From positions 62,001-126,000 of the forward strand of contig NZ_MJEI01000107.1 in assembly GCF_002095395.1 (NCBI RefSeq): DNA of 64,000 nt, written 5' to 3'. Below the pieces are notes generated by a model, which was not told the DNA's origin, did not search any database, and saw nothing but the letters and a program-made list of their open reading frames with translations. The position numbers and the translations under genes are program-made. The stretch's first letter is position 1, and each line of letters begins with the position of its first letter. This document shows, piece by piece, positions 18,356 to 20,550 of this stretch. Origin of the DNA: Williamsia sp. 1135. GTDB lineage: Bacteria > Actinomycetota > Actinomycetes > Mycobacteriales > Mycobacteriaceae.

Positions 18356-18375
18356 GGGGCTTGCGGCAAGACCCC
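18356..18375. promoter_or_regulatory. Rifamycin-associated element (RAE) upstream of helR
   Basis: GGGGCTTGCGGCAAGACCCC is a near-perfect match to the palindromic RAE described before rifamycin-inducible genes of actinomycetes: GGGG, CTTGC, GCAAG, CCCC, with one extra A in the right arm. A candidate -10 (CAGAAT) follows at 18386-18391, eight bases before the GTG of helR, which puts the RAE over the -35 region. The identification rests on motif match plus position before a helR gene. Confidence 0.88.
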
Positions 18376-18399
18376 GGGGATGGCGCAGAATCTCTCGCC

Positions 18400-20550
18400 G
18401 TGGCAGATAATCTTCGGTTTTCCAGTGTGTTCGACATCCCGCCCCGCCTCGCGAGCAAAGCCGATCCGACCCTGATCGCGCACGATCAAGAGCACTTCAC
18501 AGCAATCGCGCAGACCCTCGACAACACGATCGCAGATCTGTCCGCCCGCCTCGACACCGTGCGTAAGGCACCTGGTGGCAGCGGTCGCGACGCGATGGAT
18601 CGCGACATGGAGGTCCACCGGCTGGGTGCCCGACTACGCGCGCTACGCCGTTTCGGAGTAGACCTGTGCCTCGGCCACATGCAGTACGACGACGGCGCGG
18701 CGCCCGTGTATATCGGTCGGCTCGGCCTGACGGACAACGATGGGCGCCAACTCCTACTCGATTGGCGGTCACCGGCCGCCGAACCGTTCTTCGGTGCGAC
18801 CCACGCCGACCCGATGGGATTGTCGAGCCGGCGCCGCTACCGGTGGACCGGAAGCCGGATCACCGACTACTGGGACGAGGTGTTCACCACGGAGGGCCTG
18901 ACAAACCGGGCGGCCCTCGATGATCAGTCAGCATTCATCGCGAGCCTCGGCACCAACCACTCACCCCGGATGCGGGATGTCCTGGGCACGATCGCGGCGG
19001 ATCAGGACGCCGTCATCCGCGCGGGTTCGCGGGGCGCGCTGGTCGTCGACGGCGGGCCGGGAACGGGGAAGACCGTTGTGGCGCTGCACCGTACCGCCTA
19101 TCTCCTCCACGCGGATCCTCGTCTCGGTCACCGGAGAGGCGGCGTGCTGTTCGTCGGCCCACACCAGCCGTACCTCTCATACGTGGCCGACGTCCTGCCC
19201 AGCCTCGGCGAGGAGGGTGTGCAGCTCTGCACCATACGTGACCTGGTCGCAGAAGGGGATTGGGCCGCAATGGATCCCGATCAGCAAGCGACTCGCCTGA
19301 AGTCGTCGGCCGAGCTTGTACGAGCCATCGAGCCGGCCGTCGAGTTCTACGAACAGCCTCCGGCCAAGGGGATGATCGTCGAGACCGAGTGGTCGGACAT
19401 CTGGCTCAGCCCGGAGGACTGGGCGGCAGCCTTCGATGCACCGGCTGCGGGCACTCCGCACAACGAGGCACGCGAGGAGATCTGGTCCGAACTCCTCACA
19501 ATTCTCTCGGACGGGCATGACGGTGTCGCAGGCAGGCAGCTCCGTAAGGCGTTGCAGGAGAACGATGACCTGCGTGCGGCACTGAATCGGGCGTGGCCGC
19601 TGATCGAGGCCACCGACCTCGTCGCAGATCTGTGGTCGGTGCCGGCGTATCTACGCAAGTGCGCTTCGTGGCTCAGTGCCGAAGAGGCCGCCGCGCTGCG
19701 TCGTCCGGACCCCTACGCCTGGACCGCGTCCGACCTACCCTTTCTGGATGCGGCTCGGCGGCGCCTCGGCGACCCGGAGGCCTCGGGGCGCGGGCGCCGC
19801 CGCACCGCTGCCGTGGCTGCCGAACACGAGCGCCGCTCGGCCGTGGTCGACGACTTGATCGCGTCCGACGATTCCGAGCTGATGGTCATGTCGATGCTGC
19901 GGGGCGATGACTTGAGCCAGGCACTGATCGATTCAGATGCGGCTGATCGGACGGACCCGGATCTGTTGGAAGGACCATTCGCGCACATCGTCGTGGACGA
20001 GGCACAGGAGTTGACCGACGCGCAGTGGCAGATGCTGCTCGCCAGGTGCCCGTCCGGGAGCTTCACCATCGTCGGAGACCGCGCCCAGGCCAGAGCCGGA
20101 TTCACCGAGACCTGGCGACAGCGGCTCGAGCGGGTGGGCCTCGACCGTGTCGAGGTGGCGTCCCTGACGATCAACTACCGGACCCCGGAAGAGGTGATGG
20201 CCGAAGCCGAGCCCGTCATCCGGGCCGTGATCCCGGACGCCAACGTACCCACGTCTGTCCGCAGCAGCGGGAATCCGGTCGAATACGGCCTGACGTCTGA
20301 TCTGCGATCGGTGGTCGAGGCATGGGCCGCGTCGAACTCCGGCGGGACTGCCTGCGTGATCGGTGATCCCACGTTCGCGGGAACCGAACGGGTTCGGTCG
20401 CTGGCGCCGGAACTGGCGAAAGGTCTCGAGTTCGACCTGGTTGTCCTGGTCGATCCGGATGCGTTCGGCGATGGGGTCGGGGGAACAGTCGACCGCTATG
20501 TCGCCATGACCCGCGCAACCCAGCGGTTGGTGATCCTCACCCGCGATTAG
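18400..20550 (+). CDS. helR: HelR, HelD-family RNA polymerase recycling ATPase conferring rifamycin tolerance
   Basis: A 716-residue UvrD/HelD-type motor protein. Walker A GGPGTGKT is at residues 218-225, followed by VVALHRTAYLL. The DExx motif is VVDEAQELTDAQWQML, and the late helicase motifs VGDRAQA, LTINYRTPEEV and RYVAMTRATQRL are present. The N-terminal arm carries the HelD-style LLLDWRSPAAEPFF. HelR homologues remove rifamycin-bound RNA polymerase from DNA, and their genes have an RAE, as here. I chose GTG 18400, because the frame upstream begins inside the RAE. Its TAG stop is part of the -10 box of thyA. It has no counterpart at this place in M. tuberculosis. Confidence 0.9.
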   Translation: MADNLRFSSVFDIPPRLASKADPTLIAHDQEHFTAIAQTLDNTIADLSARLDTVRKAPGGSGRDAMDRDMEVHRLGARLRALRRFGVDLCLGHMQYDDGAAPVYIGRLGLTDNDGRQLLLDWRSPAAEPFFGATHADPMGLSSRRRYRWTGSRITDYWDEVFTTEGLTNRAALDDQSAFIASLGTNHSPRMRDVLGTIAADQDAVIRAGSRGALVVDGGPGTGKTVVALHRTAYLLHADPRLGHRRGGVLFVGPHQPYLSYVADVLPSLGEEGVQLCTIRDLVAEGDWAAMDPDQQATRLKSSAELVRAIEPAVEFYEQPPAKGMIVETEWSDIWLSPEDWAAAFDAPAAGTPHNEAREEIWSELLTILSDGHDGVAGRQLRKALQENDDLRAALNRAWPLIEATDLVADLWSVPAYLRKCASWLSAEEAAALRRPDPYAWTASDLPFLDAARRRLGDPEASGRGRRRTAAVAAEHERRSAVVDDLIASDDSELMVMSMLRGDDLSQALIDSDAADRTDPDLLEGPFAHIVVDEAQELTDAQWQMLLARCPSGSFTIVGDRAQARAGFTETWRQRLERVGLDRVEVASLTINYRTPEEVMAEAEPVIRAVIPDANVPTSVRSSGNPVEYGLTSDLRSVVEAWAASNSGGTACVIGDPTFAGTERVRSLAPELAKGLEFDLVVLVDPDAFGDGVGGTVDRYVAMTRATQRLVILTRD

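What the first reader, a model, noticed from the sequence alone, without database searches (positions are those of the whole stretch)
18356..20550. Rifamycin-associated element driving helR: a compact rifamycin-response unit
GGGGCTTGCGGCAAGACCCC is a near-consensus RAE with one extra base in the right half. It overlays the expected -35 region of a leaderless promoter 8 bases before helR. HelR frees rifamycin-bound RNA polymerase. The unit is inserted between conserved dapB-linked genes and thyA, where M. tuberculosis has none, and its stop codon is part of the thyA -10 box. It predicts rifamycin-inducible tolerance, and possibly read-through into thyA-dfrA.
Basis: partly seen in the sequence, partly recalled or inferred. 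Interest (0 to 1): 0.75.

Follow-up and report, generated by a model that had tools for sequence, protein, structure and literature searches.

The report
Rifamycin-response promoter with hidden mirror promoter
A soil actinobacterium carries a rescue gene for antibiotic-blocked RNA polymerase behind a known rifamycin switch, and comparison with many relatives suggests that this switch is really two back-to-back promoters sharing one core, which gives a testable lead on how the drug is sensed.

Summary
GGGGCTTGCGGCAAGACCCC lies at 18356-18375, 24 bp before a GTG-started helR (18400-20550; NCBIfam motor_HelR, 1224 bits, cut-off 750). The only other strong copy found in this Williamsia genome precedes arr. 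RAE plus helR is a known kind. The "extra base" is normal: position +6 is A or G in 175 of 181 relatives. helR sits before thyA in 4 of 9 genomes of the genus; 4 others have the neighbours adjacent with the same thyA -10 box, so it was inserted.

New here: the palindrome carries TTG -35 boxes on both strands. At the mirror position of the sense -10 (CANNNT, +21..+26) the other strand has TANNNT in 176 of 181 nonredundant RAE promoters of helR/helD, arr, rgt and rox, against a mean of 0.23 at other offsets. A terminator-like hairpin often follows (32 of 149, shuffles 1.7), but not in this window. The RAE therefore looks like the shared core of a divergent promoter pair, unlike the convergent rifampicin alarm of B. 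subtilis helD. I saw no mention of this in the listings and passages I read. The sensor is unknown; no experiment was run.

The parts
18355..18375 (.). RAE, 21-bp imperfect palindrome centred on 18365
   Evidence: one of two strong copies in the genome
18361..18366 (+). sense -35 box TTGCGG (19-bp spacer)
   Evidence: sequence; sense TTG at this place in 180 of 181 relatives
18386..18391 (+). sense -10 box CAGAAT of the helR promoter
   Evidence: YANNNT at +21..+26 in 169 of 181 relatives; first base C in 169 of 181
18364..18369 (-). antisense -35 box TTGCCG, overlapping the sense -35
   Evidence: CAA on the + strand at +2..+4 in 180 of 181
18339..18344 (-). antisense -10 box TAAGTT, exact mirror of the sense -10, 19-bp spacer
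   Evidence: TANNNT here in 176 of 181 relatives; mean 0.23 at other offsets
18332..18332 (-). predicted antisense +1 (G)
   Evidence: C on the + strand at -33 in 175 of 181 relatives; inference, no transcript data
18312..18326 (-). short hairpin downstream of the predicted antisense start (ACTCGC-TAT-GCGAGT), no T-run
   Evidence: terminator-like in a part of the relatives, not in the window
18400..20550 (+). helR, GTG start, 716 aa
   Evidence: NF041254 1223.6 bits, cut-off 750; M. smegmatis HelD structure 6yxu matched at 3.9e-99
17824..18321 (+). upstream flavodoxin-like gene (true start may be further in)
   Evidence: weak NAD(P)H:quinone oxidoreductase match far below its cut-off; synteny
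20548..20553 (+). thyA -10 box TAGACT, whose TAG is also the helR stop
   Evidence: box kept in the window and the 8 other genus genomes, with or without helR
20561..21373 (+). thyA, leaderless-type start
21381..21884 (+). dfrA

Best explanation
The unit is a rifamycin-inducible HelR gene of the known RAE type. HelR is expected to strip rifamycin-blocked RNA polymerase from DNA and help shed the drug. My reading of the switch is that the RAE palindrome is the shared -35 core of two mutually exclusive, mirror-image promoters. The sense promoter has a weakened -10 (CANNNT) and drives helR. The antisense promoter has a consensus-like -10 (TANNNT) and would make a short RNA away from helR, in a part of the relatives ended by a hairpin. 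In unstressed cells RNA polymerase would mostly take the antisense promoter and keep helR low. Rifamycin shifts use to the sense promoter, most likely through a still unknown dimeric factor that reads the G/C arms. Shown here: motif, geometry, conservation, family, insertion. Inferred: antisense transcription, competition, the trigger and the phenotype.
For: HelR family. Second RAE before arr with the same spacing. Mirror -10 in 176 of 181 nonredundant contexts, selected without using the -10s: HelR 95/96, mycobacterial-type HelD 22/24, Rgt 15/16, Rox 22/23, Arr 22/22 with 14 different middle triplets. In an Arr set of 15, positions -26, -22 and -21 carry 2.0 bits and the three between 0.1-0.4. 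TTG on both strands 180/181. C at -33, the predicted antisense +1, 175/181. Hairpin plus T-run after the antisense start 32/149 against 1.7 in shuffles, and 0/149 in each of three control stretches. The element is all or none: 88 of 108 HelR loci. PMC10719064 (section 9 read) reports that deleting half of the RAE abolishes induction and that the RAE overlaps the -35.
Against: No transcript of the antisense promoter is known to me. PMC10719064 describes two SENSE promoters in M. smegmatis, P1 starting about 20 bp before the RAE. The conserved block can also be read on the sense strand as YANNNT at -27 (150 of 161), though TTG is almost absent where its -35 should be. In HelR contexts the middle of the mirror box is not all free: -25 carries 1.4 bits and -24 0.7. 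The G/C arms are kept (GGG 177, CCC 165 of 181; one arm was part of the selection) and a -35 alone would not need them. No T-run terminator in the window, its hairpin region is no better than shuffles (z 0.06), and 0 of 15 Arr contexts have one. Counts depend on settings: another hairpin search gave 19 of 181, without shuffles.
Confidence: 0.6

Rival explanations
1. Classical single-promoter operator: the RAE is only the site of an unknown rifamycin-responsive regulator acting on the sense promoter. The conserved upstream block is part of that regulator's site or of another sense element, not a promoter.
For: Conserved G/C arms. The published view considers an unknown factor (PMC10719064, PMC12802891). 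The block can be read as sense YANNNT at -27.
Against: The block keeps TA...T at the exact mirror distance of the sense -10, also in Arr promoters where the rest of the block (TATAG) is mostly lost and the middle triplet is free. Almost no TTG where a sense reading would need its -35. A terminator-like hairpin points away from the gene in a part of the relatives.
Confidence: 0.27
2. Polymerase-only alarm: no regulator exists. The two overlapping promoters respond differently to rifamycin-bound polymerase, as the convergent pair of B. subtilis helD does, so the busier antisense promoter is hit first and the sense promoter is freed.
For: B. subtilis helD and pps use a strong antisense and a slow sense promoter (PMC12802891, sections 45, 48, 49). 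RAE promoters show a like asymmetry, TANNNT antisense and CANNNT sense, and serve the matching genes helD/helR and the PEP-synthase-like rph.
Against: RAE promoters overlap at their -35 boxes, so a polymerase stuck on the antisense side should also block the sense side. In B. subtilis, shortening the distance so that the two clash abolished induction. The arms are left unexplained.
Confidence: 0.2
3. Housekeeping HelD with a chance palindrome: constitutive polymerase recycling, no drug response.
For: HelD proteins remove stalled, nonfunctional polymerase in general (PMC10719064, abstract and passages seen).
Against: 0.02 matches expected by chance; the same element before arr in this genome; the strict pattern is found in 158 of 394 genomes of the class, against 3 with the reversed control pattern by my reading of the rows.
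Confidence: 0.04

Closest known systems
RAE-helR of Streptomyces venezuelae (SVEN_6029) and Mycobacteroides abscessus (MAB_3189c)
   Same: HelR/HelD class II protein with the RAE over the -35 of the proximal promoter; in M. abscessus helD and arr are the two most rifampicin-induced mRNAs (PMC10719064 passage), the same two genes that carry the RAE here
   Different: Here located before thyA-dfrA, with a leaderless or near-leaderless start. A mirror antisense promoter is not described for them in the passages read.
B. subtilis helD/pps dual-promoter rifampicin alarm (PMC12802891)
   Same: A helD gene, an antisense promoter beside a weaker sense promoter, 19-bp antisense spacer, short terminated antisense RNA
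   Different: There the promoters converge (39 bp between starts) and fire towards each other. Here they would diverge, share the -35 core and exclude each other; the B. subtilis helD promoter has no RAE (PMC10719064).
M. smegmatis HelD (MSMEG_2174, PDB 6yxu)
   Same: Class II HelD by sequence; of 30 mycobacterial loci with this type, 20 gave an RAE site and 19 of these have the mirror -10 (two of the 20 sites lie before rgt)
   Different: Another subfamily (NF041465); the window protein scores 384 against its cut-off of 1051.

Membership tests
HelR (NCBIfam NF041254) | Score over the curated cut-off along the full length | tested here: met
   1223.6 bits against 750, profile 1-706 of 706
HelR (NCBIfam NF041254) | P-loop ATPase motif (GGPGTGKT; motif name recalled) | tested here: met
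   Present and aligned with 6yxu
HelR (NCBIfam NF041254) | Primary-channel loop that reaches the rifamycin pocket | tested here: inconclusive
   The protein aligns with M. smegmatis HelD from residue 56 to its end; the loop's borders were not looked up and no structure was modelled
HelR (NCBIfam NF041254) | Displaces rifamycin from polymerase and protects cells | not testable with these tools
   Needs biochemistry
RAE promoter | Palindrome GGG-N-CTTGC-N-GCAAG-N-CCC before a rifamycin gene | tested here: met
RAE promoter | Overlaps the -35 of the gene's promoter | tested here: met
   TTGCGG, 19 bp, CAGAAT, GTG after 8 bases; conserved spacing
RAE promoter | Rifamycin induction through the RAE | not testable with these tools
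   No expression data
Convergent dual-promoter rifampicin alarm (B. subtilis type) | Two promoters facing each other with about 39 bp between starts | tested here: not met
   The two -10 boxes point away from each other, so it is not filed as a member
Convergent dual-promoter rifampicin alarm (B. subtilis type) | Antisense promoter the stronger one | tested here: inconclusive
   -10 first base T in 178 of 181 antisense, C in 169 of 181 sense fits this; strength itself was not measured

The most novel reading that the evidence does not exclude
The RAE is not just an operator. It is the shared core of a mirror-image promoter pair used across actinobacterial rifamycin-resistance genes (helR/helD, arr, rgt, rox, rph). 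Its antisense member, making a short RNA, is the sensing or gating arm: a divergent counterpart of the convergent B. subtilis rifampicin alarm, arrived at with a different geometry for the same gene families.
Probability: 0.35. Interest if true: 0.78.

Novelty: new member of a known kind. Interest (0 to 1): 0.6.

Why it matters
What reads the RAE is an open question: a 2026 paper says that the RAE is possibly bound by an unknown factor and that its mechanism remains to be elucidated (PMC12802891, passage). A mirror promoter kept in 176 of 181 cases gives a concrete, cheap test (map 5' ends on the opposite strand). If real, it links rifamycin sensing in actinobacteria and Bacillus through competing promoters, and it would change how an RAE half-deletion is read, since that also touches the antisense -35.

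Tried and rejected
The idea that the extra base marks an unusual RAE was rejected: it is the rule. A sense P1 promoter as the cause of the conserved upstream block was considered: TTG stands at the needed distance in only 7 of 181, summed over offsets -53 to -48. A terminator in the window itself was not found, the fold is no better than shuffles, and only two weak Rfam matches, far below their gathering scores, lie in 17000-22000. The general sigma-70 scan finds neither the helR promoter nor its mirror nor the thyA promoter; it asks for closer consensus and 16-18 bp spacers. Loci C40 and C52 were dropped as intragenic. One search used a mis-framed Arr query; its Arr labels were discarded and redone. 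In one search, 15 of 247 candidate sites without a recognised gene were left out of the counts; 13 loci, including some of these, were looked at, where a site was taken only if its sense -10 fitted CA...T, so that look is biased. The contexts are a sample: one search kept the best 80 of 526 loci, and of the sites only those in its cut list were used (30 loci given, 45 more fetched). In one search, 20 of 108 HelR loci have no element directly upstream; ten of these have an RAE before an rgt (nine: L042, L052, L054, L056, L060, L064, L087, L094, L103) or rox (L095) that precedes helR. In one search, 10 of 30 loci had no acceptable site. Relatives share descent, so the counts are not independent events.

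Full report
What is there. The window lies in a genome whose closest named relative by HelR is Williamsia soli (92% identity). The RAE 20-mer is at 18356-18375. The sense reading is TTGCGG (18361-18366), 19 bp, CAGAAT (18386-18391), 8 bases, and GTG 18400, the likely start of a 716-aa HelR (NF041254, 1223.6 bits, cut-off 750). The best match among solved structures is M. smegmatis HelD (6yxu, E 3.9e-99). The CAGAAT-to-GTG stretch is identical in the four genomes with this arrangement, which supports a leaderless or near-leaderless start.

Rifamycin regulon. In the whole genome the core pattern occurs without mismatch at two places: here and at C17 before an ADP-ribosyltransferase gene, arr (NF033144 169.9 bits, cut-off 130). 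In both, the RAE centre lies 21 bp before the -10. In 394 genomes of the class the strict pattern is present in 158; the reversed control pattern hits 3 by my reading of the rows. Over all loci that I held, the genes behind the element are HelR, mycobacterial-type HelD, Rgt, Rox and Arr, and Rph in at least four of the loci left unlabelled there (frames cut by the locus end, best family NF041857, below its full-length cut-off).

Place in the genome. helR sits between the flavodoxin-like gene and thyA in 4 of 9 genomes of the genus (G000, G001, G002, G007). In G004, G005, G006 and G008 those two genes are direct neighbours and thyA already has TAGACT 7 bases before its GTG. In G003 the 1.5 kb before thyA holds no match to the flavodoxin-like gene. 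The helR genes of those five genomes lie elsewhere and also have the RAE. So the unit moved into an existing thyA promoter. In three genomes its stop codon fell into the -10 box; in G007 about 100 bp with an inverted repeat separates helR and thyA. Co-transcription with thyA is likely where no terminator-like site stands between but is untested. That M. tuberculosis strains other than one generally lack HelD is stated in PMC10719064 (table footnote, passage); I did not test it.

The mirror promoter. I aligned RAE contexts on the palindrome centre. Sites were chosen by the core (at most one mismatch), at least one arm triplet and a recognised gene downstream, not by the -10s: 247 candidates, 232 labelled, 181 after removing those 85% or more identical. 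The sense strand has YANNNT at +21..+26 in 169 of 181, and the first base is C in 169. The opposite strand has TANNNT at the mirror place, -26..-21, in 176 of 181; any other offset reaches at most 6 (mean 0.23). By gene: HelR 95/96, HelDm 22/24, Rgt 15/16, Rox 22/23, Arr 22/22. In Arr the middle triplet takes 14 forms; in the earlier Arr set of 15 the outer bases carry 2.0 bits and the middle 0.1-0.4. In HelR the middle is less free (1.4, 0.7 and 0.1 bits). TTG stands on both strands in 180 of 181. C at -33, which would be the antisense +1 G with canonical spacing, is kept in 175 of 181. A look at 30 mycobacterial loci with HelD gave 20 sites, 19 with the mirror -10 (two of the 20 lie before rgt, and the set overlaps the groups above).

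Downstream of the antisense start. Hairpins beginning at or after that start are enriched (70 of 149, shuffles 16.6), and hairpin plus at least 4 T in 8 bases occurs in 32 of 149 (shuffles 1.7), with 0 of 149 in each of three control stretches, including the upstream region read towards the gene. Arr contexts have none (0 of 15). The window has a 6-bp hairpin without T-run, and its fold is not better than shuffles. A search that also let the hairpin begin before the predicted start gave 19 of 181, without shuffle control.

Mechanism. The two promoters have overlapping -35 boxes, so I expect that only one polymerase can sit there at a time. The antisense -10 fits the actinobacterial TANNNT (consensus recalled), while the sense one has C at its first base. 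I infer that the antisense promoter keeps the sense promoter low and that rifamycin tips the balance. In B. subtilis a stronger antisense promoter silences helD until rifampicin arrests it (PMC12802891; abstract and sections 45, 48 and 49 read). But there the promoters converge, and forcing them to clash abolished induction, so the same kinetics cannot simply be carried over. The kept G/C arms point to a dimeric protein. I therefore favour a factor acting on a promoter pair over a polymerase-only device.

Literature. Seen: PMC10719064 (passages and section 9), PMC12802891 (outline with abstract, three sections, passages), PMC8655204 (passages), PMC7283461 and PMC10194278 (one passage each), PMC13246000 (term search, no hits). 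The primary HelR and RAE papers were not read: one is not held, the others I know only as cited. No title or abstract start in the listings, and no passage that I read, speaks of a mirror or divergent antisense promoter at the RAE; listings are capped, and subscription papers and preprints are not covered. PMC12802891 says that the RAE overlaps the more downstream of two sense promoters and is possibly bound by an unknown factor. The reported M. smegmatis P1 start, about 20 bp before the RAE, would be within a few bases of the antisense start predicted here but on the other strand; I have not seen that sequence or data.

Verdict. The unit is a sound new member of the RAE-helR kind, with an unusual address. 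The wider pattern, a mirror promoter in 176 of 181 RAE contexts, is the part worth a laboratory test.

Noticed in passing
L194:1592-3385 (G000:C91:181091-182884): A second HelR-like frame in the same genome stops at 597 aa with an unrelated tail (matches profile 1-547 of 706); no RAE-like site was listed on this contig.
   Followed up: partly
G000:C83:26528-28732: A third HelD-type gene, below the HelR cut-off, in the same genome.
   Followed up: no
   Followed up: partly
L190, L138, L187, L165: Rifamycin phosphotransferase-like (rph) frames behind RAE promoters with the mirror -10; rph is PEP-synthase-like, as one of the two genes of the B. subtilis alarm (pps) appears to be.
   Followed up: partly
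L245:743-1510 (minus strand): An RAE with both -10 boxes before a frame with a Tat-like start and no NCBIfam match at 1e-10: possible unrecognised rifamycin-response gene, or a wrongly chosen frame.
   Followed up: partly
L042, L052, L054, L056, L060, L064, L087, L094, L103; L095: helR follows rgt (nine loci) or rox (L095) behind a single RAE, i.e. combined inactivation-plus-rescue units.
   Followed up: partly
window 20561-21373 and 23171-23992: Both thyA and a thyX-like gene (named from its sequence by me) are present, so altered thyA expression by read-through may be buffered.
   Followed up: no
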